From a virus: 64,000 nt of DNA. Below are positions 7,745-62,711 of the stretch, one piece after another. The stretch is from positions 23,401 to 87,400 of IMG/VR virus record IMGVR_UViG_3300030329_003230; one strand, written 5' to 3'. Position 1 is the first letter of the stretch; each line of letters starts with the position of its first letter. The translations under genes were made by a program, and so were the position numbers. Under the pieces are notes generated by a model that ran no database searches, was not told the DNA's origin, and saw only the letters and a list, made by a program, of their open reading frames with translations.

Positions 7745-7847
7745 AGGATGTTGGTGTCACGGTAATTCGGTTACTTGTTTTGAGTGTATGAAGAACTGTA
7801 CTTGTTATAAACCAACTGAAAGGGAAGATTACTATCAAAAGGGATAA
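7728..7847 (+). CDS. Cys-rich mini-protein, possible AUA start
   Basis: An open frame of 39 residues with six cysteines and one histidine (GCWCHG...CFECMKNCTC). There is no ATG, GTG or TTG start in frame after the upstream TGA. The best-placed codon is ATA at 7728, seven bases after a strong AGGAGG at 7715-7720, inside the end of the previous gene. The end is one base before the next ATG. The frame may be real with a non-standard start, or the true start may be hidden by a sequence error. Low confidence. Confidence 0.35.
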   Translation: MRKKIKGCWCHGNSVTCFECMKNCTCYKPTEREDYYQKG

Positions 7848-7848
7848 T

Positions 7849-8106
7849 ATGTTGGAAAAACAAAAAGAAAATAATATGAAACATACAGTAAGTCTTAGAT
7901 GTGAAATATGCAACGGTGTTAGAGGAAGTCAAAAAAAGAGCCGCAAAGTGAAGAATAAATGGTTTATGTGTTCAGAGTGTATGAACAGTACACCTCCAGA
8001 TGAACATAGATGTAATGGCCAGACTGTGAATAAGCAAAGATGTAAAAGATGGACTTTAGGAAGAAAATATACACGTTGCTCTATACATGAGGATAAGGAA
8101 TGTTAG
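7849..8106 (+). CDS. Small protein with two zinc-binding clusters
   Basis: An 85-residue basic protein with an N-terminal zinc ribbon (CEICNGVRGS...FMCSECMN) and a C-terminal cluster (CNGQTVNKQRCKRW...CSIHEDKEC). The second matches a common phage and plasmid pattern Cys-x-Gly-x-Thr-x5-Cys-Lys...Cys-x-x-His. It may bind nucleic acid. It overlaps the next gene by seven bases. Confidence 0.6.
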   Translation: MLEKQKENNMKHTVSLRCEICNGVRGSQKKSRKVKNKWFMCSECMNSTPPDEHRCNGQTVNKQRCKRWTLGRKYTRCSIHEDKEC

Positions 8107-8288
8107 GCGTTATTGTTTTTATGACGTGTTTTGGTTTTTCTTACTTCATCATACCACTATCTGTTTGGTGGGCTAAAAAAATAGAACAGAAGAATATTCA
8201 AGAATTATGGAGAGAAAAAAATGAAATGGGTAGAATTCAGCAGATTAAATCAAGCAATAGAAATGTTAACGCCGACAAAAACAATTAG
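8100..8288 (+). CDS. Small single-pass membrane protein
   Basis: A 62-residue protein with an N-terminal hydrophobic helix (GVIVFMTCFGFSYFIIPLSV) and a charged cytoplasmic-type tail. It overlaps the DNA ligase gene by 68 bases, more than is usual here, so the true end could be a remnant of a shifting overlap. Function unknown. Confidence 0.45.
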   Translation: MLGVIVFMTCFGFSYFIIPLSVWWAKKIEQKNIQELWREKNEMGRIQQIKSSNRNVNADKNN

Positions 8289-17164: not shown

Positions 17165-17280
17165 GAAGAAAAACATTCGCACGTTGGTCATTGAAAAATC
17201 TACGTCAATTCTATCTTTCTAAATTGAAAGTAAAAGTTGTCACTGATGAATATGAATATGAGGAATGGGAATATCAATGA
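17161..17280 (+). CDS. Mini-protein upstream of PolB
   Basis: A 39-residue frame with a basic N-terminus and an acidic, Tyr-rich end (DEYEYEEWEYQ). It starts in an ATGA overlap with the GIY-YIG gene and ends in an ATGA overlap with PolB, so it is well supported by context. No known domain. Confidence 0.5.
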   Translation: MRRKTFARWSLKNLRQFYLSKLKVKVVTDEYEYEEWEYQ

Positions 17281-19175: not shown

Positions 19176-19319
19176 ATGTTAGTTAAATGTCAAGAGTGTT
19201 CAACTCAATTTAGTATTAATATGTGGTCAACTATGAAACATCTATGTGGTAAGTGTTACCTTGAATATAAAAAGGAAATAAGAGAAGGCAAAAGGAATAG
19301 ATTAGGGAAGATGATATAA
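19176..19319 (+). CDS. Mini zinc-finger protein inside the PolB split
   Basis: A 47-residue protein with two Cys-x-x-Cys knuckles (KCQECST and LCGKCYLEY) and a basic C-terminal helix. Its stop overlaps the ATG of the second PolB half (TAATG), so that half is translationally coupled to it. Confidence 0.5.
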   Translation: MLVKCQECSTQFSINMWSTMKHLCGKCYLEYKKEIREGKRNRLGKMI

Positions 19320-20245
19320 TGGACGTAGTTTATGCACATACAGATTCCCTTTATGTCCCTATACCATCAATAGAAGTTGCTCAAGATGTTCAAAAAATAT
19401 TGAATAAACACATACAAGAAGTAGTGTTTCCTAATATTATGAATTTAGAATCTCATCCTATGGATTTAGAATTCGAAAAATACTATTCTGTATTAGGAGT
19501 AGGAGCAACAAGAAATAGAAATGCTGGTTACATTAATTGGAAAGATGGAGTATATCTTGCTGAACCTGAGTTCTTCGCTACAGGGTTCTCCGTTAAGAGA
19601 ATAGCTGAATCCAAATTAGCGAAAGAGGTACAGAAGAAAACCTTGGAGATGTGGATTAATCAAAAAACAGAACAAGAGATTGTTACCTTTGTTAAGAAAA
19701 AATATAATGATGTTCTTAAAGGTAGAATAGATAAATTAAACTTAGTTAAAAGAAGTAGAGTTAAAGAAAATAGAATGACTCTAAAATGCAGGTGTAGAAA
19801 GAAATACAATGTAGATTATGTTAGAAAATTGTTGAGTGTATTACCTGAATCCTTATGTGAAAAGGATAATTGTAATAGTAAATTAATCTCTTGTACCACT
19901 GTAGAAGATAAAAGACCCTCTTTCGGTGGAGGGTTTGCTGGTATGTTATATTATAATGAGCACATTAATCCTCAACAAAAATTAGATGATTCGTTTTACC
20001 ACATTAAGTGTAAATTTGGTATTAACCAAAAACAGACTTTTACTAATTGGAATGGTAAAGAGAATAAAGCTGGATATATAGCGGTTAGAAATTTAGAAGA
20101 ATTAGAACCATTTGAGCCAGATTGGCCATTCTTAGCAGAAGCAGAGGTTCTTAAAAAAGTGAAACCTATATTCGAAGCGATGGAATGGGATATATCTCAA
20201 ATAAAAATAGATGAGAGTCAAACAAGTTTAGGAGATTGGTTTTAA
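19319..20245 (+). CDS. polB: Family B DNA polymerase, C-terminal part (motif C, thumb, PIP box)
   Basis: The second half of the split polymerase, 308 residues. It begins MDVVYAHTDSLYV, which is motif C. The usual Tyr-Gly-Asp-Thr-Asp-Ser has His7 in place of the first Asp; the second, Asp9, is kept. A Cys-rich insert (KCRCRKK...CEKDNC) may bind zinc. The C-terminus QTSLGDWF is a textbook PCNA-interaction motif. Separate expression of a PolB C-terminal chain with motif C is known from Methanothermobacter, so the arrangement is plausible for an active enzyme. Confidence 0.9.
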   Translation: MDVVYAHTDSLYVPIPSIEVAQDVQKILNKHIQEVVFPNIMNLESHPMDLEFEKYYSVLGVGATRNRNAGYINWKDGVYLAEPEFFATGFSVKRIAESKLAKEVQKKTLEMWINQKTEQEIVTFVKKKYNDVLKGRIDKLNLVKRSRVKENRMTLKCRCRKKYNVDYVRKLLSVLPESLCEKDNCNSKLISCTTVEDKRPSFGGGFAGMLYYNEHINPQQKLDDSFYHIKCKFGINQKQTFTNWNGKENKAGYIAVRNLEELEPFEPDWPFLAEAEVLKKVKPIFEAMEWDISQIKIDESQTSLGDWF

Positions 20246-21714: not shown

Positions 21715-21870
21715 ATGGTATTTGATGAACTATTAGACGGACAAAGAAAACTAACAGAAACAATGGAACAAATACATACCACTTTAAAATTCAGTAACCG
21801 AATAATCATGATGGTAAATGTAGTTAATATTGCAACTATTATTGTAGTGGGTTTGGTGTTATTGAAATGA
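21715..21870 (+). CDS. Tail-anchored membrane micropeptide
   Basis: A 51-residue protein with a soluble N-terminal half (MVFDELLDGQRKLTETMEQI) and a C-terminal transmembrane helix (MMVNVVNIATIIVVGLVLL). It starts two bases after the previous stop and overlaps the next gene (ATGA). Confidence 0.5.
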   Translation: MVFDELLDGQRKLTETMEQIHTTLKFSNRIIMMVNVVNIATIIVVGLVLLK

Positions 21871-45853: not shown

Positions 45854-46041
45854 TATATTCCACTTTCCTTCATTGATTTATCAATCATATTAACGAGTTC
45901 TTTTTCGATTCCCTCAACTATAAATGCCATTATTTCTTCATCAGAATAAGTAAATGCTCCTAAACCTGTATCTTGAAATAATCTATTTCTTTCTTCGTAC
46001 ATTTCCTGTATTCTTTTAGTGATACGTATAATATCACTCAA
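45853..46041 (-). CDS. Small neck-region protein
   Basis: A 62-residue helical acidic protein (ITKRIQEMYEERNRLFQDTG...) between connector and terminator genes, overlapping both (ATGA-type). It may be a head-closure or neck accessory. Not recognised. Confidence 0.55.
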   Translation of the reverse strand: MSDIIRITKRIQEMYEERNRLFQDTGLGAFTYSDEEIMAFIVEGIEKELVNMIDKSMKESGI

Positions 46042-47152
46042 TCAAGAACACCCCTTCTTGTTTACCGTTAATTATTTCCATAGCTTCTGTTCTTAAAATA
46101 TCATATTTTTCTTTAACAGATATTTGATTTCCAGACTCAGTAATAAGTACAGTTGCATCATCTGAGCGTAATATTTCACAAGCAACTAATTTAGTTGCAG
46201 CATCAGTAATTACTGCTGGGACTGTGCCACTACCAGCAAAATAAGTAGCCCTAACAGAATTAAGATGAATATATGGATATTTATCTCTAAAGAAAATCCT
46301 ACCTTCTCTACCTATTTTCCACCACTCCTCTTTTCTACCACTATCTTCTTTATCAGTAAATGCGCTAACTTCTATACCCTGAACAGAAGTAGTGGCTGCA
46401 TTCCCATTCATGTATATGGTACAGTTAGCACCATCATCACTTGGTAATAATGATGAAATTAGAACTTTATTGGAATTTTCTGAATCAAGACAAGCATAGA
46501 AAAAATCTGAAACTTGTTTAGCACCAGTAGAATCCGTCTGCCCTTTTGCCTGAGTCGCTCCTGTTAATGCAGCAGTTTGAGAAGGATACTTTTCATTAAT
46601 GAGTGAAACAAGTTCCCTAGCGGCAGTTTTATTTCCATAAGTAGTATCGAATCTTGAATTTGTAGTGCCGGCAAGTAAATTGAAAACTAAACCACTATTA
46701 GGTAAACGAAGATTAATTGTGGTTGTTCCACTAACCATTGAAGTATAATCATTCATTGTTACAGACGCTTCTGCACCACAAATATTAGTCCATTGGGTTC
46801 CTTCCCAAATGTCTAATCTAATCATTTTAGAAATACTATGTCTGTCTAATTGAACAAAACCAAGATAATCTCTCCATCTTCCAGCAGGGTAATGTCCTAT
46901 TCCCGTTGTGAAATTATGGTGTTCATCTTGATAAAGCAGCCTTCTCCAAGAAGTCTTAGTTTTACTATCAATGAAATCTTCAATCCTTTTTATGAATTCT
47001 CCAACTTCAGAATGCATAGGTGTTGTATTAGCAGTAAAGTTAGGAATCTGTAGAAGTTCTGCTACTTTAGAAGAAGTAGTATAATATCCATTACCTGTGG
47101 AATAATTAGCATTAATAACTGTTGTATCTGAAGGAGACTTATACTGTGCCAT
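46034..47152 (-). CDS. Head-tail connector/adaptor-type protein
   Basis: A 372-residue protein. The N-terminal half has VGEFIKRIEDFIDSKTKTSW and the C-terminal half AATKLVACEILRSDDA...KYDILRTEAMEII. These two helical arms flank a large beta insertion, as in gp6-type head-tail adaptors that sit below the portal. Position between head and tail genes supports this. The insertion (YTSMVSGTTTINLRLP etc.) is unusual. Confidence 0.6.
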   Translation of the reverse strand: MAQYKSPSDTTVINANYSTGNGYYTTSSKVAELLQIPNFTANTTPMHSEVGEFIKRIEDFIDSKTKTSWRRLLYQDEHHNFTTGIGHYPAGRWRDYLGFVQLDRHSISKMIRLDIWEGTQWTNICGAEASVTMNDYTSMVSGTTTINLRLPNSGLVFNLLAGTTNSRFDTTYGNKTAARELVSLINEKYPSQTAALTGATQAKGQTDSTGAKQVSDFFYACLDSENSNKVLISSLLPSDDGANCTIYMNGNAATTSVQGIEVSAFTDKEDSGRKEEWWKIGREGRIFFRDKYPYIHLNSVRATYFAGSGTVPAVITDAATKLVACEILRSDDATVLITESGNQISVKEKYDILRTEAMEIINGKQEGVFLIE

Positions 47153-47154
47153 AA

Positions 47155-48195
47155 CTAATTCTCCGAACCTTCTGGAATATTATTTACTGCTCTTTCTAGT
47201 TTGTTTAATTTACCTCTAATGAATTTGAAATAATTACTCAACTGAAGGTTAGCAGTTTCTTCTGGTTTAACTTCTAAAAGATTTTTAGGGTCAACTTCTT
47301 CCCCCTCAAGGAAAACTCTACCTTTAAATTCTGATAAATTTATAACTTTAATAGACACTTTATCTACAGTTTCTCTAAAAGTAACTATAAATTCTAATTT
47401 TATATCATATATATGACGTGGATTAATTGGGAATCTTATATCTTCTAATATTAGCTGTTTATTATCGAATATAAAATCCTTAATTATTTTAGGGGATTCT
47501 CCAACATAATCATACAATACTGATATTCCGCCTTTCTTTCGACCAGATAACATATTTTTTAGGTTCTTATCTTTAAATTCTAAATCATCAGTATCTATAC
47601 TTACATTGATTTTTTCATTTATATTAAGGCCTGAAGAAACAGTTTCTTCTATACCTTGTATTGTTTCCCCTTTCAAATTTTTAATTTTTAAATTTTTATC
47701 AGAAAACTCTAACTTTAGTGAAAAACTATTCTTATCAGACTTAGTTTCAGTGATGTATTTTTTAAAAATATTCTTAATAAAATCATCATCAGATAATGTT
47801 TCAAGTATTGAAATTTCAGAAGTTTCTGTTTCTTTCTTTGCTTTATCAGAAGAAACGTCCTCTATTTTGAAATTAACATCTAACTCTTCGATTTTTAACA
47901 TTTCTTTTGTTTTATTATCTATGTAAATGTCTGAGTCTTCAATCTCTTGTCTTAATTTTGAAGCTCTTAATTTATCTAATGTTTGTTCACTTAAGTTTTT
48001 TAGATAGTCTTCATGCTCTTTAGTATAATTAAGAGCCATTTCTTCATCCATTTCTTCTAAAAACTGAACCATCCATTCAAATTCTCTTGGTCCTCTTGGG
48101 TATTTTAATACATATTTTTTAAAACTGGGTAATAATACCTCTGTTAAATCTGTATTTTTTAATCTACCAGCATCGTTAAACCAAGGAAAATCCAT
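47155..48195 (-). CDS. Hypothetical virion-module protein
   Basis: A 346-residue acidic protein (MDFPWFNDAGRLKN...) with repeated charged helices and beta strands (NLKIKNLKGETIQGI) and no cysteine. ATG 48195 is used because upstream in-frame codons lie within the overlap with the previous gene; the ATG at 48213 is an alternative. A neck or tail-associated structural role is likely by position only. Confidence 0.5.
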   Translation of the reverse strand: MDFPWFNDAGRLKNTDLTEVLLPSFKKYVLKYPRGPREFEWMVQFLEEMDEEMALNYTKEHEDYLKNLSEQTLDKLRASKLRQEIEDSDIYIDNKTKEMLKIEELDVNFKIEDVSSDKAKKETETSEISILETLSDDDFIKNIFKKYITETKSDKNSFSLKLEFSDKNLKIKNLKGETIQGIEETVSSGLNINEKINVSIDTDDLEFKDKNLKNMLSGRKKGGISVLYDYVGESPKIIKDFIFDNKQLILEDIRFPINPRHIYDIKLEFIVTFRETVDKVSIKVINLSEFKGRVFLEGEEVDPKNLLEVKPEETANLQLSNYFKFIRGKLNKLERAVNNIPEGSEN

Positions 48196-48200
48196 ACTAA

Positions 48201-48944
48201 TCAAGCCAACCATTTAGCCCAAGCAGCGCCCTTGGAAATCATTTTACTTAATCCTAATCCGCTATTTGGTGGGCTATAGGTCGCTTGACCAGTAGCAGGG
48301 TCAATCCAATATGGATTATTGTAATTATCATAACCCGCTGGAGGAACAGGATATCCTGATTGATTATTAAATGCCTGTTGTTGATTCATCATTTGTTGAT
48401 TCATTCCACCTTGAGGGGGAGCACCTTGAATGGGCATACCATTTGGACCAACTCCTGCGCCCTGCATTCCCATTGCTGCTCCACCAACCATAGCTCCACC
48501 AGCCGCCGCAGCCGCTCCTGCCATTTGTGGATTAGCACCATCACCAAAACCTTGAGCCTCTAAATATTGACTCTTAGCCATCTGTCTTTGATAGACAACT
48601 TCAGAGTTAACAGAAGCAGTCAAAATTTTCTGTATATCTAATTCTATATTTTCTTCTGTAATTTGTTGGTATTTGGTTAAACAAGTCTTTTCTAAAGTTA
48701 TATCTCCTTGAGTTGGTTCTAATTTAAAATGTAAATCAGCAAGCATTGCACTCACTACTCTTTGTACTACATCTTCTAATAATTTCTCAAATGTAGTCAA
48801 AAAAGCTTCACCATGATAAAGTAAAAATTCTTCAACATGATTATCTTGTAAAGTCAAAAGATTATTCATTGCTTTGAAATTACTCTGATTATTATTCTGC
48901 ATCTGTGTCGCTAATGCGCCATTACTTGTTCCGAAAAGTCCCAT
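48201..48944 (-). CDS. Hypothetical Gly/Met-rich protein
   Basis: A 247-residue protein. The N-terminal ~130 residues are helical (NHVEEFLLYHGEAFLTTFEKLL). A Gly/Ala/Met-rich spacer follows (AAAAAGGAMVGGAAMGMQGAG), then a Gln/Asn/Pro-rich stretch and a short C-terminal helix (GLSKMISKGAAWAKWLA). This modular layout suggests a flexible virion linker. No enzyme motif. Confidence 0.55.
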   Translation of the reverse strand: MGLFGTSNGALATQMQNNNQSNFKAMNNLLTLQDNHVEEFLLYHGEAFLTTFEKLLEDVVQRVVSAMLADLHFKLEPTQGDITLEKTCLTKYQQITEENIELDIQKILTASVNSEVVYQRQMAKSQYLEAQGFGDGANPQMAGAAAAAGGAMVGGAAMGMQGAGVGPNGMPIQGAPPQGGMNQQMMNQQQAFNNQSGYPVPPAGYDNYNNPYWIDPATGQATYSPPNSGLGLSKMISKGAAWAKWLA

Positions 48945-48946
48945 AT

Positions 48947-49585
48947 TTATTCACCTACTAATTCATCTATTTGTCCTATTTTACCCTTGAGCTCTGTTAA
49001 TAATATGAATAGTTTTTCCTCGGCAGTCGTAGTATCAGCGCTTGGGGGCGTTATCTCCCAACCTTTAGAGGTTAATGAAATTATATCTTTTTCACTCAAT
49101 GTTACTAAAGGTCCACTTCTCATCATACTAGGAACTCTTGGTTTAGGTATGTATTTTTTAAATTCTAAACCATGTTTTTCAGCAATAACTTGTTGCTCTA
49201 ACATTTCCATTTGTTTGAATAAAGAAGAGTGCCTTGGGCAATAAGTCCCTCTCAGCGGCCTACCTTTATTAACGTGAGATAAAGGAATAGGGGGCCTTAG
49301 ATTATCGCCGGGTTCCCAAACATGATGAACTCCACAAACAACGCATCTATCTCTAATGTTAAATCTAAATCCATATTTCTTGAATAAGAACTTCTTTTTC
49401 TCAGGAAGTAACACTTTCTTGAGTTCTTTCATTTGTTTTTTAACATCAAGCGATTTGAACTCATAAACAAAAATAGGGCCAGCGAGCCGAGCGTTATGGC
49501 TTACTCTAGCAGAATTAATCATTTTATCCATAGAACTATCGTTCATACCTATAATATTAGGTGTAAATACCATTTGTTGCGTCAT
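48947..49585 (-). CDS. Zinc-ribbon protein near the GTPase
   Basis: A 212-residue basic protein. A zinc-binding segment (DRCVVCGVHHVW...GTYCPRHSSLF) lies in the middle, flanked by coiled-coil-like helices. It directly follows the GTPase gene in transcription order and starts two bases from it. Function unknown; could be a partner of the GTPase. Confidence 0.55.
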   Translation of the reverse strand: MTQQMVFTPNIIGMNDSSMDKMINSARVSHNARLAGPIFVYEFKSLDVKKQMKELKKVLLPEKKKFLFKKYGFRFNIRDRCVVCGVHHVWEPGDNLRPPIPLSHVNKGRPLRGTYCPRHSSLFKQMEMLEQQVIAEKHGLEFKKYIPKPRVPSMMRSGPLVTLSEKDIISLTSKGWEITPPSADTTTAEEKLFILLTELKGKIGQIDELVGE

Positions 49586-49586
49586 A

Positions 49587-50264
49587 TTAATACTCCTTAA
49601 CCATTGTCATTATTCCTCTGTAGACCATTTCGGGGTCCGACTTGGCAGATACGATGTATTTGAAACAAGGTATCCCTTTATCCTGTAAACGTTGCATACC
49701 GAGCCTGAATGGTTCAAAGATGGGGTGTTTATCGATGGACCCGTCGAATTCATAATTATCTTTCCATAAATCGTACTTATTAGCCCATATGCCTACGGCT
49801 ATTGGGAAGTCCTTTTCCTTCTTCTTTTTAGATTTATTCTTATTTAATCTCCAATACTCATCACAAATTGTATCGACCATAAATTGCCACCCTAATTGAT
49901 TCTCCAAATTATATGCTTCTCTTAAGTGCCTATCATCAATCATGAATATGATATATTTGACATGTCTATTACGCATATCTTTTTGCCAAGCATCCCAATA
50001 GTAAGACTGCCCCCCTACATCTGCGGTTTTTATTGTTCTAGAATCTTTATCTATTTTCACTACTTTTCTAGTGGTTCTGTTTAGCCCAACTGTTCTTTCA
50101 GCAATATTAGGTACTTCCCCTCTTGTTCTTAGTTGATGATGTAATGTTGTTTTTCCAACTTTAGAAGCACCATATACTCCAAAATTTAATGCGTGTAATC
50201 TTTGATATAATTTAGCGGCGGCTTCTGCTAAAAGAATAGAAAAGCCTGTTAATAAAGTAGCCAT
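49587..50264 (-). CDS. Arf/G-alpha-like small GTPase
   Basis: A 225-residue GTPase. G1 is GASKVGKTT (32-40), G2 is the Thr in ERTVGLN (58), G3 is DVGGQ (82-86), as in Arf and G-alpha proteins, G4 is NKYD (162-165) and G5 is SAK (206-208). The N-terminus (LLTGFSILLAEAAAKLY) is a hydrophobic amphipathic helix, like the membrane helix of Arf. The catalytic Gln (86) is kept. Two small membrane proteins are encoded directly before it. GTPases of this type are rare in viruses and not expected in a virion module. GTP-binding is predicted with confidence; the target is unknown. Confidence 0.85.
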   Translation of the reverse strand: MATLLTGFSILLAEAAAKLYQRLHALNFGVYGASKVGKTTLHHQLRTRGEVPNIAERTVGLNRTTRKVVKIDKDSRTIKTADVGGQSYYWDAWQKDMRNRHVKYIIFMIDDRHLREAYNLENQLGWQFMVDTICDEYWRLNKNKSKKKKEKDFPIAVGIWANKYDLWKDNYEFDGSIDKHPIFEPFRLGMQRLQDKGIPCFKYIVSAKSDPEMVYRGIMTMVKEY

Positions 50265-50483
50265 TTAACCCCATCCGAATAGCCCCTTAACCCTATCAAC
50301 AAACATACCTAAGAAATCAATTCCATTAGCACCCATTATATTTCCTATAATGAAAAAAGCAGTAGAAGCAAGAACACCCCAAAGTAATGCTCTTATTTTA
50401 ATGAAAAAAACATCAGCAGAGTGGGCTCTTGATAAGTCGTAAGCTAGAGATTGCTCATCTACGCCTAATAATCGGTCTAACAT
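50265..50483 (-). CDS. Small membrane protein next to the GTPase
   Basis: A 72-residue protein with one transmembrane helix (LLWGVLASTAFFIIGNIMGA) and a short charged N-terminus. ATG 50483 is preceded by GGTGAT; the in-frame GTG at 50495 overlaps that site. It ends one base before the GTPase gene. Probably acts with the GTPase. Confidence 0.6.
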   Translation of the reverse strand: MLDRLLGVDEQSLAYDLSRAHSADVFFIKIRALLWGVLASTAFFIIGNIMGANGIDFLGMFVDRVKGLFGWG

Positions 50484-50505
50484 TTTTATCACCAATCATG
50501 AATTA

Positions 50506-50892
50506 TCATTCCATTGCCTTTAGAAATTGTTCAGAGACTTCATCATAAGGTCCACCATCCCCTGAAGCCCTATAATAATTTAAATTTCTAGAATTCATCG
50601 TTTCACGAATCTTTTGCCTCTGAGAATCATCTCTATTTCTTTTCTGCCAATATAATTCTATTTTTCTATTCAATAACCACGTCTCTAATCTTTCGTTTAC
50701 CGCTAAATCGAATAGAGCTTTTTGTAGCATAATTACACCTACCGTAACTAACGCAAATAGTATAGCGTGAGATATCGGTGGGAAAGGTAACGCTGCTCCA
50801 TATACCGAGTAGAAGTAAACATTCAGTCCAGAAACTGCTCCTACATACATTATCGTCATTATCAGTCTTGTGTCTTTATCTATTGCTGCCAT
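50506..50892 (-). CDS. Membrane protein with cytoplasmic helical tail
   Basis: A 128-residue protein with two transmembrane helices (LIMTIMYVGAVSGLNVYFYS and AILFALVTVGVIMLQKALF) followed by a basic/acidic helical tail (NRKIELYWQKRNRDDSQRQK). No signal or enzyme motif. It is first of the membrane-protein/GTPase trio. Confidence 0.6.
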   Translation of the reverse strand: MAAIDKDTRLIMTIMYVGAVSGLNVYFYSVYGAALPFPPISHAILFALVTVGVIMLQKALFDLAVNERLETWLLNRKIELYWQKRNRDDSQRQKIRETMNSRNLNYYRASGDGGPYDEVSEQFLKAME

Positions 50893-50915: not shown

Positions 50916-51233
50916 TTAATTAAATTCAACAGTAAAGGTTGTTCCTGTTCCGCTAACATCTGTTACGTCTGCGAATAATCCAGTAGTGAATCTTACTCCA
51001 TGCATATCTGCTTCGTTATACGAGTCTCCTTCAGAAGCTAAACCAACATATAACATACCTAACATGTTAGCATCACTACATGCTCCTTGAGTTAAACAAT
51101 CATGAATAGTTACATATCCGGTGTCCGTTCCAGTTGCATAACCGTGAATACTGATTAATTTCCCACCACCAGTATAAATGAGAGTATCAGCACTAATTGC
51201 ACCACTACTTCTACATCCACCTATACCCGACAT
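50916..51233 (-). CDS. Small beta protein, paralog of the next gene (probable decoration)
   Basis: A 105-residue protein (MSGIGGCRSSGAISADTLIY...) paralogous to the 51254-51586 product: shared GIGGCRSxGAxSxDxL, GKLISIxG, HDCLTxGA and EADMHGVxF. ATG 51233 is preceded by GGAGGAGAGAATATG-type bases, so the upstream start is not used. Placed after the capsid gene, so possibly a decoration or spike protein. Tandem duplication. Confidence 0.6.
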   Translation of the reverse strand: MSGIGGCRSSGAISADTLIYTGGGKLISIHGYATGTDTGYVTIHDCLTQGACSDANMLGMLYVGLASEGDSYNEADMHGVRFTTGLFADVTDVSGTGTTFTVEFN

Positions 51234-51253
51234 ATTCTCTCCTCCTTTCAATA

Positions 51254-51586
51254 TTAATTAAATGTCACTAAAAATTTAGTTGCAGTGCCTGCCACATGGG
51301 TAACTTCCGCAAATATACCATTTTTGAACGTGACACCATGCATATCTGCTTCAACAAAATTACCAGCCGTCGCTGTGGTTCCAACATATAATACTCCAAT
51401 AGTATTAGCAGCATTTGCAGCACCAGCAGTTAAACAGTCATGTAAAACAACATATGCTGAATTATCAACTGGTCCACCAGTAACAAAAGACATACCAGTA
51501 ATACTGATTAATTTGCCAGAACCAGTGAATAGTAATGAATCACCCGAAAAGGCTCCAGTACTTCTACAGCCTCCTATACCAGTCAT
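51254..51586 (-). CDS. Small beta protein, paralog pair (probable decoration)
   Basis: A 110-residue protein similar to the following gene over its whole length, with an N-terminal SITGIGG-type motif (MTGIGGCRSTGAFSGDSLL) and the conserved HDCLTAGAAN and EADMHGVTF blocks. A beta sandwich or jelly-roll is likely. It is probably a capsid decoration or fiber subunit, by position. Confidence 0.6.
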   Translation of the reverse strand: MTGIGGCRSTGAFSGDSLLFTGSGKLISITGMSFVTGGPVDNSAYVVLHDCLTAGAANAANTIGVLYVGTTATAGNFVEADMHGVTFKNGIFAEVTHVAGTATKFLVTFN

Positions 51587-52656: not shown

Positions 52657-54024
52657 TCAGAAAAGGTTAGTAATCTTGCCTTGTCCCTTGAAGAAGGTAC
52701 ATCCAGTCTCACCCATTGTTCGGTAAAGTCCTCGGTTTCCGAGTACTCCAACACCGAATGGATTTCCGTGGCTGATACCGTCCTCGAAATACTGAGTTGG
52801 TTTTAGCGTAGCGAACCAAAGGTGGTCAGTGTCAAGCAGAAGAATGTCAGAAATCTTCGTACCTGTGTAAGCACCAGTTGTTGGCATATCTTTAGCTGGA
52901 ATTAGAGGGATATCGTAGTATGTTGCAACACGGAATCCAACTTCTGCACCTTTTACACCTTTTACACCGTTATGGCTAGGCATTACTTCTTTAGAGTCCA
53001 TGAATCTCTCTTGGCTCTGAAGTAGGTCAGAAATTGCCTGAATTGTGTCGTATCCTGTAAGCATAACTTTAGGAGCTCCACCGTTCAATCGCACATTCTG
53101 AATGACTGTGTTCATGATGCTTAGGGTGAATTGTCGGCCAGCAGTTGCATAGCTTCCACCAAAGTTTACTTCAGCATCCAAGTAAGATGCAGCACTTCGG
53201 GTTGCGCCGTAAATGATTTTTGCATCATCGTCAGTGGTTGCGTAGTTGGTTGTTCCACCAATGTTGGAAAGGTTGTGAATACCAACAGTGTCTGCCAATT
53301 CTCCGAAAGAGCTGCAAATCTTCATCAAAGATGTGTATTGTTCACGGATTCTTCCATTTGTTACGGAAACATCAGCACCGAAGTCATCGTACATTTCTAA
53401 TGGCATGACGAGCATCTTCGATTGAGATTCAGCGTGGAATTTACCCATATCTTCACGGATAAGTTTCCTAAGGTCGCCTACTCCATCGTCAATCTTTGCC
53501 ATTTCAGCAGCTAATTCGCTGTAATCGAACATATGTGCAACGATTTTCGGATTCATGTATAGGTTAGCATATTCTGGAGCCATTGCAAGAAGAGATGATG
53601 AACCGAGAGCCTCGTTTTCACCAACTCCACCAATGATATCTGCATCAGGTGCAGCAGTTCCTTGAGCGGCAGTTCCAGCAGTTGTGGAAATTCCGAATGC
53701 AGCAGCGCTTCCACCCTGCGGCCTGTTCGTCATTACTCTCCATCCACTTGCTGTGTATGGCCTCTTTGGTAGAATTGAAAGTGGGTTGATTTCTTGGTTA
53801 ATCATTGACCAAACTTTCTGTCCGTAAATAACGTTGTAAAGGTTTGCAGCACCAGTTGTTGCTGTACCGTTAAGGTTAATTGCGTCACCAGAGGAACCGG
53901 GGAAACCGCTTCCAATAGAACCGACAACTCCAGCAGCCTTCAATAGATTGTTTCCTGCCAATCCACCAAAGCTACCGTAAGTTGCGGCTTCCAAATCTTT
54001 CATTGTGTTAATGTACTTTGTCAT
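52657..54024 (-). CDS. Major capsid protein (HK97-type)
   Basis: A 455-residue protein in the expected position after the prohead protease. It has a Gly/Ser-rich N-terminal arm, an E-loop-like stretch (KRPYTASGWRVMTNRPQGG), a long spine-like helix (ELAAEMAKIDDGVGDLRKLI) and a C-terminal A-domain with RFTLSIMNTVIQNVRLNGG and GYDTIQAISDLLQSQERF, ending FFKGQGKITNLF. ATG 54024 is nine bases after AAGGAG, better than the ATG right next to it. The coding DNA is clearly richer in G+C (near 45% in sampled stretches) than its neighbours (near 30%), with more C-ending codons, as in highly expressed or recently exchanged genes. Confidence 0.75.
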   Translation of the reverse strand: MTKYINTMKDLEAATYGSFGGLAGNNLLKAAGVVGSIGSGFPGSSGDAINLNGTATTGAANLYNVIYGQKVWSMINQEINPLSILPKRPYTASGWRVMTNRPQGGSAAAFGISTTAGTAAQGTAAPDADIIGGVGENEALGSSSLLAMAPEYANLYMNPKIVAHMFDYSELAAEMAKIDDGVGDLRKLIREDMGKFHAESQSKMLVMPLEMYDDFGADVSVTNGRIREQYTSLMKICSSFGELADTVGIHNLSNIGGTTNYATTDDDAKIIYGATRSAASYLDAEVNFGGSYATAGRQFTLSIMNTVIQNVRLNGGAPKVMLTGYDTIQAISDLLQSQERFMDSKEVMPSHNGVKGVKGAEVGFRVATYYDIPLIPAKDMPTTGAYTGTKISDILLLDTDHLWFATLKPTQYFEDGISHGNPFGVGVLGNRGLYRTMGETGCTFFKGQGKITNLF

Positions 54025-54063
54025 CTTTTTCATCTCCTTATTTTTATTTTTGTTTTATCTAGC

Positions 54064-55383: not shown

Positions 55384-57867
55384 TTAATTGTTCCTGAATT
55401 TTAATTTAGAAAACTTATCTTTACTAATATCCCAAACCCCTTCATCAGTATCAGAGTCAACAGGTTCAGTTTCTAAACCAGTCCAAGCTAACCAAATATC
55501 TTCACCGTCAACGGGAATAACCCTAACATGAAATTTAGTATCAAATTTATTTCCTTCTAACATATATTCATGATAACCGTCTCTTTGAACTCCTAATTCT
55601 ACTTTACCGGAATCAACTAATTTGCCCTTTCCATATTTGTCTTCCACTTGAGCAGGGAATTTACCTGATTTACCAAAAAGAGAAAATATATCTTCATCAT
55701 CTTCTATATCTATTTCCCATCCAAATAATTTATCACTCACTTTGAAAAAGATACATAGGTTATCATTATCCTTTCTATAAATTTTAAATTCTCCTTTTCT
55801 ATATTCATCAGGAGTTTTGTAATCTTTCTCTATCATATCATCAGCAGCAGAAAACACTCCTTCTTGTTCATCATAAGTTATATCTTCTAGTTGTTTCATC
55901 CAATCTTTTAATTTTTTACTATCAGACTCAAAAAGATTACTAAAATAATTCATATGTTTTTCTCTTACAAAATCTTCTATTTTATCAAAAGAAACTCTAC
56001 CAGTTTCCATTAAGAAATTTTTAACAGCCAGTCTGAACTTTGCTTTTTGTGTTTTCAACATATCTTCTATCTGAGTTTTCCAAACATCAATATCTAGTAT
56101 AGCATTTTTAGACATCAAATTATTTTCTTCAAACCCATAAAACGTAAACCCATCTAAATCTGATTTAATTATGGCAGTGGCTTCACCGTGTATAATATCT
56201 GAAATTTTATATCCTTTCTCTAAAGCTTCTACATTATAGTTAAGAGATTTCTTAGTATCTTGAGATAATAATTCAAGAGTGATGAGTTTTTCAGGTAATT
56301 CAACTTCAGGTATCTCAATAGGTTTAGCAGAGAATAACTTGTAGCCTCCGTTTTTATCTTTCTTTACTTCATCTATTTTAACTCGGATAATAGTACCTAC
56401 ATCAACATCTATTTTTGTATTCAGGGCTTTACCTACTTCCAAATATTTCCTATCATTAATCATTTTAGTATTTTTAAAATCATCATTATCCGATAATGGC
56501 CCAGCACCTAAAGTATAAGTGAACATATTAGATTTAGTAGTCTTTTTATCTAATACCATCATATCTAAATCAACGAATTTCTTCCACTTAATCCATTTAG
56601 GGTTCTTCTTAGTTCCAACAAAATAAGTAGATGTTAGGTCTTTTATTACTACCCCCTCAGCAGTTGGTATTTGCATAATTTCTTCTGAATATTCTTCTAC
56701 TTCCTTAATAGAATCAGCATAACGTGTATCTTTTTTAGAAGGGAAAGCTAGTTTCTCATCTGAATGAGTAGAATAATTATTGAAAAGTATAGTTAACCTT
56801 TCAGATAATTCTTCTTCATGTAACTCTCTATCTTCATGCCTCATAATATCGAATACATGTACTCTTAATTCTGAATCTTCCGCTTCCTTTCCTTTGAATA
56901 TTCTGGCCACAACTTCTGCTCTATGTAATGGTTCTTCCTTTTGGAAAAGCATTAATTCTGCATCAAGGATACAATCCCCAAAGTGTTTAGCAGCCATTAT
57001 TTTCTTTTGTTCTGGACATTTATCGGTGATGTCTTTACCATTGAATGAATAAATCTTAATTTGTTCATCTATCTTATGAATCTGAATTCTCATTCCATCA
57101 TATTTTTCTTGAACAACCCATTTTCCTGTAAATCCCTTTAATTCTTTCAAATCATCTATCTCAAAAATCCTATACATTGGTTTGTTAGGTATTAAAAAAT
57201 GAATATCAGATTTCTGAGCTTTTTCTAAACTAACCGTTTTATTCCATTTAGATTTCCCATGATGAGACACAAATATATCTTCTAATAATTTAGCAGCAGC
57301 CTTGTATTTACCTTTAATTCTCTTAGTATCTTTACCATCCCCATAGTGTTCTACAATAAAATCAATGACATCTTTTTTAGATAAATTAAGACCTTTATAT
57401 CCTTCAGTAATATTATCTGGTTCTAAATCATTTTTTTCCCAAGCGCCGTCACTTAACGATTTATCATGATTTCTTATAGCCCAATGAATAAATTTAGCAA
57501 ATAAAGAGGGATTAGACATTAATTGGTCTAATACTTCTTCTCCGTATTTAATACTGAAAGGGTCTTTAACAATTCCAGAGGAGTACCTTAATTCTTTAAC
57601 TTGAGAATAAATATCCCTTGCAATGTCTGTTTCTACATTTTCAGCTTCGTCAGAAAATAAATTATCTTCATTAATTACTTTTTTAATTTCTTTACTGAAA
57701 TCATCTATGTCATCCCACTGTTCACGTAATATTTTAATCTCACTTATCCATTTCTTGCCATATTGTTTAGGGTCTGATAAAGCAGAAAGATATGACATTC
57801 GCATTTTTTCAAAAAATTGAATGACCCTTAGAGTTATTGGGGTATCTTTCGTAATAGAAACAGGCAC
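55384..57867 (-). CDS. Second ATP-dependent DNA ligase, 827 residues, with LigD phosphoesterase-like domain
   Basis: Adenylation motif I is VQEKYDGMR (Lys255), motif III CILDAELMLF, IIIa VHVFDIM, IV AEGVVIKDL and V WIKWKK, so an active nucleotidyltransferase is predicted. An OB-fold follows. The N-terminal ~240 residues are a divergent helical DNA-binding part. The C-terminal ~130 residues (SGKFPAQVEDKYGKGKLVDS..., WLAWTGLE) resemble the 3'-phosphoesterase domain of bacterial LigD, by eye. Its place among head-assembly genes is odd: it may be packaged in the virion or join genome ends after infection. Start ATG with CGTGTGCCT upstream, no strong site. Confidence 0.85.
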   Translation of the reverse strand: MPVSITKDTPITLRVIQFFEKMRMSYLSALSDPKQYGKKWISEIKILREQWDDIDDFSKEIKKVINEDNLFSDEAENVETDIARDIYSQVKELRYSSGIVKDPFSIKYGEEVLDQLMSNPSLFAKFIHWAIRNHDKSLSDGAWEKNDLEPDNITEGYKGLNLSKKDVIDFIVEHYGDGKDTKRIKGKYKAAAKLLEDIFVSHHGKSKWNKTVSLEKAQKSDIHFLIPNKPMYRIFEIDDLKELKGFTGKWVVQEKYDGMRIQIHKIDEQIKIYSFNGKDITDKCPEQKKIMAAKHFGDCILDAELMLFQKEEPLHRAEVVARIFKGKEAEDSELRVHVFDIMRHEDRELHEEELSERLTILFNNYSTHSDEKLAFPSKKDTRYADSIKEVEEYSEEIMQIPTAEGVVIKDLTSTYFVGTKKNPKWIKWKKFVDLDMMVLDKKTTKSNMFTYTLGAGPLSDNDDFKNTKMINDRKYLEVGKALNTKIDVDVGTIIRVKIDEVKKDKNGGYKLFSAKPIEIPEVELPEKLITLELLSQDTKKSLNYNVEALEKGYKISDIIHGEATAIIKSDLDGFTFYGFEENNLMSKNAILDIDVWKTQIEDMLKTQKAKFRLAVKNFLMETGRVSFDKIEDFVREKHMNYFSNLFESDSKKLKDWMKQLEDITYDEQEGVFSAADDMIEKDYKTPDEYRKGEFKIYRKDNDNLCIFFKVSDKLFGWEIDIEDDEDIFSLFGKSGKFPAQVEDKYGKGKLVDSGKVELGVQRDGYHEYMLEGNKFDTKFHVRVIPVDGEDIWLAWTGLETEPVDSDTDEGVWDISKDKFSKLKFRNN

Positions 57868-58533: not shown

Positions 58534-58839
58534 TTATTCACCTAATCCATTAGAGAGTGTTAGTAAATTAAGTTCGATTTCACCTAGAAGATTTATCTTA
58601 CTTATGATATCATTGGGTATGCTTCCGTCAGCTACATCCCTGCCCTCGTATTTATCTAAATCCTTGAGTAGTGCAGAAACTTTTTTCTCAATCTTAGTAA
58701 TATATTCCTCGATGTTTTGTCCTTGCTTCTCTTTATTGAGGAATACTGTTGCCCGACCAACTTTGTTCTTTGATGAGGTGTACTCATCATATTCACCATC
58801 TTTTTGTTCTTTCTTTTTTATCTCATCTTTCCAGCTCAT
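58534..58839 (-). CDS. Small head protein with N-terminal MSW motif
   Basis: A 101-residue protein starting MSWKDEIKKKE, then two charged helices (IEEYITKIEKKVSALLKDLD). The N-terminal motif is shared with two other genes nearby. It overlaps the next gene by four bases. Function unknown; probably packaged or head-associated. Confidence 0.55.
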   Translation of the reverse strand: MSWKDEIKKKEQKDGEYDEYTSSKNKVGRATVFLNKEKQGQNIEEYITKIEKKVSALLKDLDKYEGRDVADGSIPNDIISKINLLGEIELNLLTLSNGLGE

Positions 58840-59177
58840 TTTTCTTCCTCTCCTAAACTACCTGAACTCTTTGGATATACTACTTTCCTAACCTGCCTAT
58901 ACAACTGCTCATACTGCTTTCGTAATTTGCTCGCCGTGGCAACCATATCAACGTTCTGTTCACTGATAGATTTCATCTTCTTATTTAATTTAGAATCATC
59001 TTTAACTAAATCAAGACCTTCCATCATCTCAATAAGTTCCCCTAATTTAGTAAAATCTTGACCGAAATATTCTGAAGGTTCAGCAGCTTGCAGTGTTTTC
59101 TTTAGTTTCTTTTTCTCTTTAGAGTCAAGAGCATTTAAAATATCACTCTTAGCTTTTAGAACATTTTCCCAAGTCAT
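58836..59177 (-). CDS. Small head protein with N-terminal MTW motif
   Basis: A 113-residue helical protein starting MTWENVLKAKSDILNAL, with a Lys-rich first half and an acidic end (SSGSLGEEEK). It starts directly before the preceding gene's stop. Third member of the MSW-type set in this region. Confidence 0.55.
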   Translation of the reverse strand: MTWENVLKAKSDILNALDSKEKKKLKKTLQAAEPSEYFGQDFTKLGELIEMMEGLDLVKDDSKLNKKMKSISEQNVDMVATASKLRKQYEQLYRQVRKVVYPKSSGSLGEEEK

Positions 59178-60643: not shown

Positions 60644-61051
60644 TTAATCTCCCCTCATATTTTGGATAATATCATTAGCCATATCTTTATTTTCCTTAGT
60701 GGGTTTTACCCGTTCTGAACGACTAACTTTTGCATGGGGGTCATCCATTGTAAAACCATCTTCATGTATCATATTCTTAAAACAAACATCACATTCTTGG
60801 TAAATGTTTATTTTGTCTTCAATGGGTTCTCCACTATCCCAATGTTCTAATAGAAACCTTTTCATTTTAGGACTTCCAAAATGGTCTTGAATTACACCAC
60901 AGTAATCACAAGTATTTACTTTGTTTATGTATTTATCTAAGTTTTTCAGATAATATTCTTTCATTTCTTTTTGAAAGGGACTAAGGGTTCTTTTCTTAGG
61001 GGTTGTAGGTTTTCTTTCTTCTTTGGTCTTCAATATATCTTCCCAACTCAT
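60644..61051 (-). CDS. Head-module zinc-binding protein with MSWEDIL motif
   Basis: A 135-residue protein starting MSWEDILKTKEER, with a basic helical part and a zinc ribbon (NTCDYCGVIQDHFG...ECDVCFKNM). Start at ATG 61051 gives exactly the shared N-terminal motif; an in-frame codon at 61060 adds three residues. It overlaps nothing and ends near the 74-residue gene. Possibly a DNA-binding internal head protein. Confidence 0.6.
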   Translation of the reverse strand: MSWEDILKTKEERKPTTPKKRTLSPFQKEMKEYYLKNLDKYINKVNTCDYCGVIQDHFGSPKMKRFLLEHWDSGEPIEDKINIYQECDVCFKNMIHEDGFTMDDPHAKVSRSERVKPTKENKDMANDIIQNMRGD

Positions 61052-61052
61052 A

Positions 61053-62711
61053 TTAACCAACCCTCCTTTCTGTTCTTCTATCTACATTATTATTAGCTGC
61101 TTCCTCTGGTAAACCTGAATTCCGCTTAGGTGGTCCTACACTCATCTTTGGTTTAGGACTTTCTCCCTTTACTTCCGCAGGCTTACCTGCTTCAGCCAAT
61201 GTTGGTTTATTTCCTTCAGCCACCATTTGACCAATGTATCTCTGGTCTACATCAGTTCCAGCATAAGGGTCTGATTCAAATGCTTCTTCTTCCTTAGATT
61301 CTCCACTTCCACCTTCGGGTTGAGGTTTTGGTTTAGAATAGATGAATTTACCATCTTCATCCATATCCACTTCAAATCCAAGATTCTTAATTTGCCCTGC
61401 AATATTAACTTCAATTTCTCTTTTTCTCATTTTAGCAATTTCATCTTCCTCTTCAGATGGTGGTAAAACTAATTCCCAATCAGTTATACCAAACTGCTTA
61501 ACCATGAATGGGAATACATATTTATTCCAAACATTTTGTGCCATTTCTACTGCTCGGTTAGTGACAAGAATCTGCATACCTTCGTTATTTAACCCTCCAC
61601 TGGTAGAGTTATCAGCCATGAAAATTTTACTTACACCATAAAAGGCAGAGACTCTATCCCTCAAATCTTCTTTAACAGAAATATAATCCATTTCTTTAAG
61701 TGAATCCATGAATTTAACCCACTCTACAGAACCTCTACCATTCTCGGCCTCTATACCCATAACAGGAATAAAGTGAGCGTCTTGTTCCATCTTTTCTTTA
61801 ACTCCCCTCCAAAAAGTCCTCATAGATTCAATGTTTCTTGTTTGAACAGCAAGAAGACCTTTTGGCATTCTACTCTTAGTATAAGCTTGATTGATGTAAT
61901 TCTCCATAGCAAGTAAAGTGGTTAAATGATTCCACATAGTTACTACAGGGCTCGTTCCATAAAGTCTACTTGGGGAATATTTACTGAAATGAAGAACTTC
62001 CCCTTTAATGAAATTCTGCTCATAACCGTGTGCTCTATTAACATAATGAACTGGATAAACATCACCATTACATTCTCCACATTTCTCATACATATTATCA
62101 ACAGAAAGATGCCTATGGTGAATACAAGTAAAAGAATTCCCACCTTTATTGCCATCTTCATCACAAACAATTGCCATAGATACTGGGTCAGCACGATACA
62201 TCTGTTTAATTCGATGAGCTCTAATGTTTCCATTACCATCAACAAAGTATTCTTTTACAAGAACCAAATAAGCATCATCCATAATATTGAGGTCATCTTC
62301 TAATTCCTTTAGAACATCAATAAGCATCTGTTCTGCATCATTGACATAACCTGAACCCATAAATTTCTCAGCATATGTTTTTTGATTTTTATCTGGTTTT
62401 TTCAGATTAGTAGATTCACATTCAGCACACTCTAATACTGTTTCTTCATGTTCCTTACCACAATCTTCACATTTAACAGAAAATCTTGGACTCCATTGGT
62501 ATCCTCTCCTGAAAATTTCATTCTTCAATTGAGTAATACAAGTTCTTAAGATAACTGAACTTTCAGCAATATGATAGACTAAAGGCCCTGTCATCGTTAA
62601 AGGATGATGACGTTCCTGTATCCCCATCTGGTAAACTTCTCTATCAGCAGGAACAGGAGTAGATTTCCTGAAAAAATTAGTTAAGGAAAATCTTCTTTTT
62701 TCTTCAGTCAT
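61053..62711 (-). CDS. Portal protein with zinc-ribbon insertions
   Basis: A 552-residue portal, the dodecameric ring for DNA packaging. Supporting segments: ILRTCITQLKNEIFRRGYQW, LHFSKYSPSRLYGTSPVV and WNHLTTLLAMENYI, then SAFYGVSKIFMADNSTSGGLNNEG, typical of the phage portal core. Two Cys clusters are embedded: Cys81/84/95/98 and about residues 195-218 (CIHHRHLSVD...KCGECNG). Such zinc ribbons in a portal are unusual. The C-terminal ~90 residues are Pro/Gly/Glu-rich. It overlaps the upstream LAGLIDADG gene (ATGA). Confidence 0.85.
   Translation of the reverse strand: MTEEKRRFSLTNFFRKSTPVPADREVYQMGIQERHHPLTMTGPLVYHIAESSVILRTCITQLKNEIFRRGYQWSPRFSVKCEDCGKEHEETVLECAECESTNLKKPDKNQKTYAEKFMGSGYVNDAEQMLIDVLKELEDDLNIMDDAYLVLVKEYFVDGNGNIRAHRIKQMYRADPVSMAIVCDEDGNKGGNSFTCIHHRHLSVDNMYEKCGECNGDVYPVHYVNRAHGYEQNFIKGEVLHFSKYSPSRLYGTSPVVTMWNHLTTLLAMENYINQAYTKSRMPKGLLAVQTRNIESMRTFWRGVKEKMEQDAHFIPVMGIEAENGRGSVEWVKFMDSLKEMDYISVKEDLRDRVSAFYGVSKIFMADNSTSGGLNNEGMQILVTNRAVEMAQNVWNKYVFPFMVKQFGITDWELVLPPSEEEDEIAKMRKREIEVNIAGQIKNLGFEVDMDEDGKFIYSKPKPQPEGGSGESKEEEAFESDPYAGTDVDQRYIGQMVAEGNKPTLAEAGKPAEVKGESPKPKMSVGPPKRNSGLPEEAANNNVDRRTERRVG

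What the first reader, a model, noticed from the sequence alone, without database searches (positions are those of the whole stretch)
49587..50892. Arf/G-alpha-like GTPase with two membrane proteins inside the virion module
The gene at 49587-50264 has all five G motifs (GASKVGKTT, Thr58, DVGGQ, NKYD, SAK) and an N-terminal amphipathic helix as in Arf proteins. Two small membrane proteins precede it with almost no space, and a zinc-ribbon protein follows. This set sits between capsid/decoration and connector genes, so it is expressed late. Established: DVGGQ is the Arf/G-alpha G3 form. Inference: the virus may use a membrane-bound GTP switch for entry, egress or remodelling of host membranes.
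Basis: partly seen in the sequence, partly recalled or inferred. Interest (0 to 1): 0.85.

Follow-up and report, generated by a model that had tools for sequence, protein, structure and literature searches.

The report
Membrane-GTPase cassette in marine archaeal viruses
A whole lineage of abundant ocean viruses that infect archaea carries, in the middle of its virus-particle genes, an inseparable set of five genes built around a small GTP-switch protein with a membrane helix, a kind of protein that among the viral structures searched turned up only in giant viruses of eukaryotes; it is the best candidate so far for how these viruses handle their host's membrane, although no function has been tested.

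Summary
Minus-strand gene 49587-50264 encodes a small GTPase of the extended Ras/Arf kind. All five G motifs are invariant in 187 copies, except that catalytic residue 86 is Gln or Glu. The fold matches Rab/Arl/Ras (Foldseek probability 1.00); dN/dS is 0.08-0.12. The virus fits Magrovirales (viruses of Poseidoniales archaea).

The GTPase belongs to an obligate five-gene cassette: a two-helix membrane protein, a one-helix membrane protein, the GTPase, a CxxC...CxxH protein and a conserved soluble protein. It was found in every magrovirus locus with room, and is absent as a unit from Druskaviridae and other tailed viruses with related capsids. The nearest sisters show an empty site between the decoration gene and the next gene.

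'Arf' fits the motifs, but the subfamily is unresolved, and the N-terminal helix reads as a hydrophobic anchor rather than a demonstrated Arf-type amphipathic helix. The closest working analogue is the archaeal vesicle-budding GTPase ArvA (also with a zinc-protein neighbour), but the ArvB and ArvC families are absent, so it is not that operon.

Best guess, inferred: a membrane-anchored GTP switch acting late on the host membrane for egress. Main rival: membrane-docked head/neck assembly. Interest 0.8; new variant of a known kind.

The parts
50506..50892 (-). Cassette gene 1: 128-aa membrane protein, two hydrophobic helices (about residues 10-28 and 43-61) and a charged C-terminal tail
   Evidence: hydropathy 1.47 and 2.17; present in 89 of 89 loci with room; 183 copies with invariant D7-T8-R9, G18, G22, N24; no Pfam or convincing PHROG family
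50265..50483 (-). Cassette gene 2: 72-aa membrane protein, one strong hydrophobic helix, invariant RAHSAD motif before it (ORF is open from TTG 50495; homologues start at the ATG at 50483)
   Evidence: hydropathy 1.86; 90 of 90 loci with room; R23-A24-H25-S26-A27-D28 at least 97% conserved in 171 copies
49587..50264 (-). Cassette gene 3: small GTPase, 225 aa
   Evidence: Pfam Ras 1.6e-5, Roc, MMR_HSR1, Arf; AF2 model pLDDT 81.5; Foldseek; 187 copies
50196..50261 (-). GTPase N-terminal hydrophobic helix (residues 2-23), invariant G7-F8, nearly invariant Glu14
50145..50171 (-). G1 / P-loop GASKVGKTT (residues 32-40)
   Evidence: G32, G37, K38, T39, T40 invariant in 187 copies
50091..50093 (-). 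G2 Thr58
   Evidence: invariant in 187 copies
50007..50021 (-). G3 DVGGQ (residues 82-86); Gln86 is Glu in two thirds of homologues
   Evidence: at least three changes on the tree
49770..49781 (-). G4 NKYD (residues 162-165)
   Evidence: N162, K163, D165 invariant in 187 copies
49641..49649 (-). G5 SAK (residues 206-208)
   Evidence: invariant in 187 copies
48947..49585 (-). Cassette gene 4: 212-aa protein with a putative zinc site C81-x2-C84 ... C116-x2-H119
   Evidence: four ligands invariant in 38 diverse members; 86 of 87 loci with room; no Pfam family, no DUF2072/OapC match
48201..48944 (-). Cassette gene 5: 247-aa conserved soluble protein, helical N-terminal half, G/Q-rich middle, conserved GYPxPPxG...PYWxDP...AxWAKWL C-terminus
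   Evidence: 83 of 83 loci with room; 171 copies
50916..51586 (-). Context: two tandem similar small proteins (50916-51251, 51254-51586), putative decoration/virion proteins, just upstream of the cassette
   Evidence: same position in relatives; function assumed, no family match for the second
47155..48213 (-). Context: gene just downstream of the cassette; a relative directly follows the decoration gene in sister viruses that lack the cassette
   Evidence: profile match E 1.5e-7 to L325:4529-6325 and 3.4e-5 to L328:9366-11165
46034..47152 (-). Context: connector-type gene, homologue of HVTV-1 gp125
   Evidence: phrog_17057 7e-18; tblastn 8e-4; profile 4.4e-20
52657..54033 (-). Context: HK97-fold major capsid protein
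   Evidence: phrog_24667 1.1e-25; SU10_MCP 3e-7

Best explanation
A five-gene viral cassette (two small integral membrane proteins, a small GTPase with its own hydrophobic N-terminal helix, a zinc-site protein, and a conserved soluble protein) was gained, or kept, as one unit in the virion module of Poseidoniales tailed viruses. SHOWN by sequence: the genes, motifs, fold, obligate co-occurrence, purifying selection and clean insertion between the decoration gene and the pre-connector gene. INFERRED: it is expressed late with capsid and tail genes; the GTPase sits on the inner face of the host membrane with the two membrane proteins; GTP loading and hydrolysis (Gln/Glu86), perhaps tuned by the zinc-site protein acting as GAP or effector, switch assembly of a membrane complex that remodels or opens the cytoplasmic membrane for virion release, i.e. 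a GTP-timed egress device in viruses whose hosts have no peptidoglycan for a holin-endolysin system to attack.
For: Genuine GTPase. All-or-none cassette: 90/90, 89/89, 86/87, 83/83 neighbours; 47/47 capsid-anchored loci; absent as a whole from Druskaviridae and intermediates. Sisters with the same head genes lack only the cassette, which argues for a host-interface role rather than a basic head-building role. On the late strand of the window the only clear predicted membrane segments outside the tape measure are the two partners and the GTPase helix. Related viruses carry other small membrane proteins in the same stretch: a 73-aa XhlA-like protein (Pfam 1.2e-4, below cut-off) in L312 and gp124 in HVTV-1. 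Precedent in Euryarchaeota: ArvA drives vesicle budding and has a zinc-protein neighbour (PMC10927574). Egress of most archaeal viruses is unexplained (PMC4456609).
Against: No functional data of any kind. The membrane partners match no holin or ArvB/ArvC family. The cassette lies between head and connector genes, where structural genes are expected, and its GTPase is more conserved than the capsid protein (64% vs 59% at far loci), unusual for a lysis gene. The amphipathic character of the N-helix is not shown. Druskaviridae leave their hosts without the cassette.
Confidence: 0.42

Rival explanations
1. Membrane-docked morphogenesis: the two membrane proteins and the anchored GTPase form a platform on which the head or neck is nucleated or completed; GTP hydrolysis is a checkpoint before the connector and tail join; proteins 4 and 5 bridge the platform to the capsid.
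For: Fixed position between decoration and connector genes in all loci; 1-2 nt spacing to the downstream structural genes; conservation above that of the capsid protein; single copy in every near-genome-length contig.
Against: Sister viruses with homologous capsid, decoration-position, pre-connector and connector genes do without all five genes. I know of no tailed virus whose head assembly needs a GTPase (own knowledge).
Confidence: 0.28
2. Entry device: the GTPase and membrane proteins are carried in or delivered by the virion and act on the membrane at infection.
For: Encoded among virion genes; membrane helices.
Against: No packaging evidence; a cytoplasmic GTP switch would have to be delivered before acting; the MSWxxILK N-terminal tag seen on other late proteins is not on these proteins.
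Confidence: 0.11
3. Host takeover or superinfection exclusion: a late membrane complex that alters the host surface, vesiculation or signalling rather than releasing virions.
For: Resemblance in plan to ArvA, which controls vesicle output (PMC10927574).
Against: Universal and strictly single-copy in the lineage, whereas accessory host-interaction genes are usually patchy (own knowledge).
Confidence: 0.1
4. Captured host ArvABC vesiculation operon (true homologue of ArvA with ArvB and ArvC).
For: Same superfamily and an N-terminal helix; a zinc-site protein next to the GTPase.
Against: ArvB (PF09846) in 0 of 30 genomes and ArvC (PF09845) above cut-off in 0 of 30, with weak sub-threshold matches elsewhere in five genomes, while both searches ring in Haloferax volcanii. 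Gene order and the membrane proteins differ.
Confidence: 0.05
5. SR-beta-like receptor: an anchored GTPase that helps insert viral membrane proteins.
For: Hydrophobic N-helix followed by a G domain is the SR-beta layout; the SRPRB profile matches 35 of 71 members (best 3.2e-5).
Against: SRPRB never reaches its cut-off; no SR-alpha partner seen; only two small client proteins; does not explain genes 4 and 5.
Confidence: 0.04

Closest known systems
ArvA-ArvB-ArvC (OapABC) archaeal vesiculating GTPase system of Haloferax volcanii (PMC10927574)
   Same: Small Arf/Ras-type GTPase with an N-terminal hydrophobic helix, in an operon with a zinc-site protein, in (viruses of) Euryarchaeota; plausibly acts on the membrane
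   Different: No ArvB (DUF2073) or ArvC (DUF2072) family member; two membrane proteins and a fifth conserved protein instead; viral, late, inside the virion module. ArvA itself could not be compared directly
Arf/Arl GTPases (Arl8, Arf1) of eukaryotes
   Same: G2 T-[IV]-G and G3 DVGGQ form; N-terminal helix; Arl8 has the highest target TM-score in the structure search (0.73)
   Different: About 20% identity; lysine-rich loop before G4; helix more hydrophobic than amphipathic; Arf profile just below cut-off for the window protein; Gln replaced by Glu in most homologues
SR-beta (SRPRB)
   Same: Membrane-anchored layout with a hydrophobic N-terminal helix
   Different: Below the family cut-off in every genome tested; no SR-alpha partner seen
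Ras/Rab GTPases of eukaryotic giant viruses
   Same: Virus-encoded small GTPases; the only kind of viral structural match in the top 50
   Different: Those belong to giant viruses of eukaryotes; this one is a syntenic lineage-wide core gene inside the virion module of a tailed virus of archaea
Druskaviridae (HVTV-1, HCTV-1) virion module
   Same: Protease, capsid, small genes, connector order; homologues of the flanking genes
   Different: None of the five cassette genes; a single small membrane protein (gp124) lies next to connector gp125

Membership tests
Ras-superfamily (extended) small GTPase | G1 GxxxxGK[ST], G2 Thr, G3 DxxG, G4 NKxD, G5 SAK | tested here: met
   all invariant in 187 copies
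Ras-superfamily (extended) small GTPase | Fold | tested here: met
   model pLDDT 81.5; Foldseek top 50 all small GTPases, probability 1.00
Ras-superfamily (extended) small GTPase | GTP binding and hydrolysis | not testable with these tools
   needs purified protein
Arf family | DVGGQ G3 and T-[IV]-G after switch I | tested here: met
   window has both; Gln86 is Glu in 124 of 187 homologues
Arf family | Profile match above the Pfam cut-off | tested here: not met
   20.8 bits vs 22.3 for the window protein; 33 of 71 members match at E 0.01
Arf family | N-terminal amphipathic helix | tested here: inconclusive
   helix predicted, moment not above shuffles
Arf family | Phylogenetic placement among Arf/Arl rather than other archaeal GTPases | not tested
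   no archaeal comparison set reachable
SR-beta (SRPRB) | Profile match above cut-off | tested here: not met
   best 21.4 bits, cut-off 25
ArvABC system | ArvB (PF09846) near the GTPase | tested here: not met
   0 of 30 genomes; control rings in H. volcanii
ArvABC system | ArvC (PF09845, DUF2072 zinc ribbon) near the GTPase | tested here: not met
   none over cut-off in 30 genomes, none at the cassette
ArvABC system | GTPase orthologous to ArvA | not tested
Holin-type lysis protein (membrane pair) | Match to a holin family | tested here: not met
   no Pfam match; PHROG only insignificant (0.46) for one homologue
Holin-type lysis protein (membrane pair) | Membrane lesion causing lysis | not testable with these tools
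   needs expression
Magrovirales (host virus) | 85-110 kb genome, opposed replication and virion clusters, B-family polymerase, RFC, ATP-dependent ligase, chaperonin, Druskaviridae-like capsid | tested here: met
   against PMC10768690 and PMC12999244; ligase identity read from sequence only; reference genomes not available

The most novel reading that the evidence does not exclude
The first virus-encoded GTP-switch membrane machine known in viruses of prokaryotes: a dedicated five-part egress (or membrane-remodelling) device of archaeal tailed viruses, standing in for holin-endolysin in hosts without a peptidoglycan wall, working like eukaryotic Arf and archaeal ArvA but assembled from otherwise unknown protein families.
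Probability: 0.38. Interest if true: 0.93.

Novelty: new variant of a known kind. Interest (0 to 1): 0.8.

Why it matters
Magroviruses are abundant, uncultured viruses of Marine Group II archaea, and how archaeal tailed viruses leave cells without a peptidoglycan wall is an open question (PMC4456609). The window shows a lineage-wide core cassette whose GTPase is more conserved than the capsid protein, with no PHROG family of its own and no mention as a GTPase in the magrovirus papers that could be searched. It gives five named genes to test. It also places a small GTPase of the kind eukaryotes use for membrane traffic in viruses of Euryarchaeota, beside the recent discovery of vesiculating GTPases in their relatives.

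Tried and rejected
(1) Chance or pseudogene: rejected (invariant motifs, dN/dS 0.08-0.12). (2) Host gene caught once as an auxiliary gene: rejected, since it is universal and single-copy in the lineage. (4) The first structure prediction with 21 sequences was poor (pLDDT 54.7) and was replaced by one with 71. (5) Homologues in isolated phages or plasmids: none by tblastn. (6) Named magrovirus reference genomes ON649702 and OR863078 and two key papers were not held. (7) Sigma-70 promoter scan: fewer matches than in shuffles, and not relevant to archaea. (9) PHROG hits of a few members (Sak4-like and others) are P-loop cross-matches in 1-2 of 71 members. (10) The A1 profile (21 sequences) found nothing in the PDB at E 0.01; the single sequence and the broader profile did, weakly.

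Full report
WHAT WAS CHECKED. The gene lies on the minus strand at 49587-50264 (225 aa). Pfam gives Ras 1.6e-5 (above its cut-off), Roc 3.8e-5 (below), MMR_HSR1 1.5e-4 (just above) and Arf 2.9e-4 (just below). Single-sequence search of the PDB finds Arl8/Arf first (6e-4). With an alignment of 71 homologues, AlphaFold2 gives a good model (pLDDT 81.5, pTM 0.81). Foldseek against the PDB returns only Rab, Arl, Arf and Ras type GTPases in the top 50 (E 4.6e-9 to 3.3e-7, probability 1.00; highest TM-score on target length 0.73, Arl8). The same search in a library of viral proteins returns in its top 50 only proteins whose named sources are giant viruses of eukaryotes or related environmental sequences.

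CONSERVATION. Degenerate-pattern scans of IMG/VR found 322 and 341 stretches encoding a relative. In 187 copies the nucleotide-binding residues are invariant, and the catalytic position 86 is only Gln (63) or Glu (124), with three changes as the fewest on the tree. dN/dS against five close relatives is 0.08-0.12. At far loci the GTPase is more conserved than the major capsid protein (64% vs 59% identity to the window). No PHROG family represents it, and tblastn finds nothing in 50,697 phage records or 72,556 plasmids.

THE UNIT IS FIVE GENES. Upstream lie a 128-aa protein with two hydrophobic helices and a 72-aa protein with one. Downstream lie a 212-aa protein with invariant C81, C84, C116, H119 and a 247-aa soluble protein. 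Gaps are 10, 0, 1 and 2 nt. Wherever the contig is long enough the neighbours are there: 90/90, 89/89, 86/87 and 83/83. The single miss is a contig that ends where an extra gene intervenes in close relatives. Starting instead from the capsid gene, 47 of 47 magrovirus loci with room carry the GTPase. Of 29 long magrovirus contigs, 28 (68-103 kb) carry exactly one copy, as does the window's own record; the 184 kb record carries two copies and two chaperonins.

BOUNDARY. A scan from the HVTV-1 capsid reached Druskaviridae, intermediate tailed viruses and magroviruses in one list. All magrovirus loci with room have the cassette. Loci L299-L332 with enough downstream sequence have none of the five genes, although they keep the capsid gene and often the connector gene homologous to 46034-47152. 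In the nearest sisters (L325, L328) the order is capsid, two small genes, decoration-position gene, a relative of 47155-48213 (profile E 1.5e-7 and 3.4e-5), connector, with nothing between the last three. So the cassette is a clean insertion, or, since Druskaviridae may descend from among marine viruses (PMC8651126), possibly a loss elsewhere. The sisters' whole contigs also lack the GTPase, although several of these are fragments.

WHICH VIRUS. The window is 23401-87400 of an 87.4 kb record with opposed gene clusters, chaperonin, RFC, B-family polymerase, portal, S78 protease, HK97 capsid and tail tube. This matches the published description of Magrovirales, viruses of Poseidoniales (PMC10768690, PMC12999244). 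The host link is inferred from this match; the two reference genomes were not available for direct comparison.

WHICH GTPASE. The double-glycine G3 and the T-V-G after switch I are Arf-like, but Pfam votes are split (MMR_HSR1 60, Roc 54, SRPRB 35, Arf 33, Ras 17 of 71) and SRPRB never reaches its cut-off. I file it as an extended Ras-like small GTPase of unresolved subfamily. The N-terminal helix is conserved (invariant G7-F8, nearly invariant Glu14) and very hydrophobic (19-residue hydropathy up to 1.97), but not more amphipathic than shuffles. A membrane anchor in the manner of SR-beta is at least as likely as an Arf-type helix.

HOW IT MAY WORK. On the late strand of the window the two small proteins and the GTPase helix carry, apart from the tape-measure protein and a weak stretch in a large tail protein, the only predicted membrane segments. 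The remaining 23.4 kb shows a few other hydrophobic ORFs, mostly short ones of doubtful coding status. The nearest functional analogue is ArvA of Haloferax volcanii: an Arf/Ras-type GTPase with a releasable N-terminal helix, whose deletion strongly reduces and whose over-expression boosts vesicle budding, with a zinc protein ArvC proposed as GAP (PMC10927574). The viral set resembles it in plan but not in parts: ArvB and ArvC families are absent. Some related viruses carry other small membrane proteins in the same stretch, one XhlA-like (below cut-off), and HVTV-1 has gp124 beside its connector. Because most archaea lack a peptidoglycan-like wall and egress of most archaeal viruses is unexplained (PMC4456609), GTP-timed opening or remodelling of the host membrane at release is my best guess (0.42). 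A membrane-docked assembly platform comes next (0.28). The fact that sisters with the same head genes do without the cassette argues mildly for a host-interface role over a head-building role.

NOVELTY. Of the magrovirus papers in the open library only one contains a word beginning with 'GTP', and it is an unrelated GTP cyclohydrolase. A search for phage-encoded small GTPases in Caudoviricetes gave no paper. Subscription papers could not be checked. The protein belongs to a known superfamily; the viral cassette as a system has no counterpart that I found.

Noticed in passing
window 58836-59177 and 60644-61060 minus; L297:4884-7064, 7352-7552, 7826-8083, 8080-8349, 9008-9319 minus: A recurrent N-terminal peptide MSW(K/E)xILK on otherwise unlike late-strand proteins: 7 of 255 ORFs in the own genome and 146 of 10,113 ORFs over all loci within residues 1-14, against 2 and 1 at the next two positions. 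It may be a capsid-targeting or packaging tag, comparable to that of T4 internal proteins; these genomes carry an S78 prohead protease. It deserves its own study.
   Followed up: partly
L016:8666-9208, L072:8660-9073: Some relatives carry one extra gene (180 aa and 137 aa, unlike each other) between the GTPase and the zinc-site gene, both starting with MW..[IV]LK-type tags.
   Followed up: partly
L312:8380-8601; L299:9544-9876: Small membrane proteins in the same stretch of related viruses without the cassette: a 73-aa XhlA-like protein (Pfam 1.2e-4, below cut-off) and HVTV-1 gp124 (110 aa) next to connector gp125.
   Followed up: partly
window 55384-57867 minus: An 827-aa protein that looks like an ATP-dependent DNA ligase with a long C-terminal extension sits in the late virion cluster between portal-side genes and the prohead protease, and stays there in relatives.
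   Followed up: no
window 50916-51251 and 51254-51586 minus: Tandem pair of similar small proteins (MSGIGGCRSSGA.../MTGIGGCRSTGA...) upstream of the cassette; many relatives have only one matching gene.
   Followed up: no
window 17265-18932 and 19319-20245 plus: B-family DNA polymerase appears split into two ORFs, as described for Aoguangviridae.
   Followed up: no
window 3138-3365 and 3439-5013 plus: Chaperonin (Cpn60_TCP1 4.8e-48) preceded by a short GroES-like ORF with no Pfam match; 20 of 30 related records have a chaperonin, the rest of the cassette-bearing ones do not.
   Followed up: partly
window 21715-21870 plus: A 51-aa ORF with a strong membrane helix (hydropathy 2.58) on the early strand; no Pfam match.
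   Followed up: no
L093 (NZMJ01000101.1): A magrovirus-like contig carrying the cassette is binned in a bacterial MAG titled Maricaulis sp.: probable misbinning.
   Followed up: no
L204 / G026 (IMGVR_UViG_3300021958_000021, 184,733 bases): Record of double size with two copies each of GTPase and chaperonin: two related genomes joined, or an assembly artefact.
   Followed up: no
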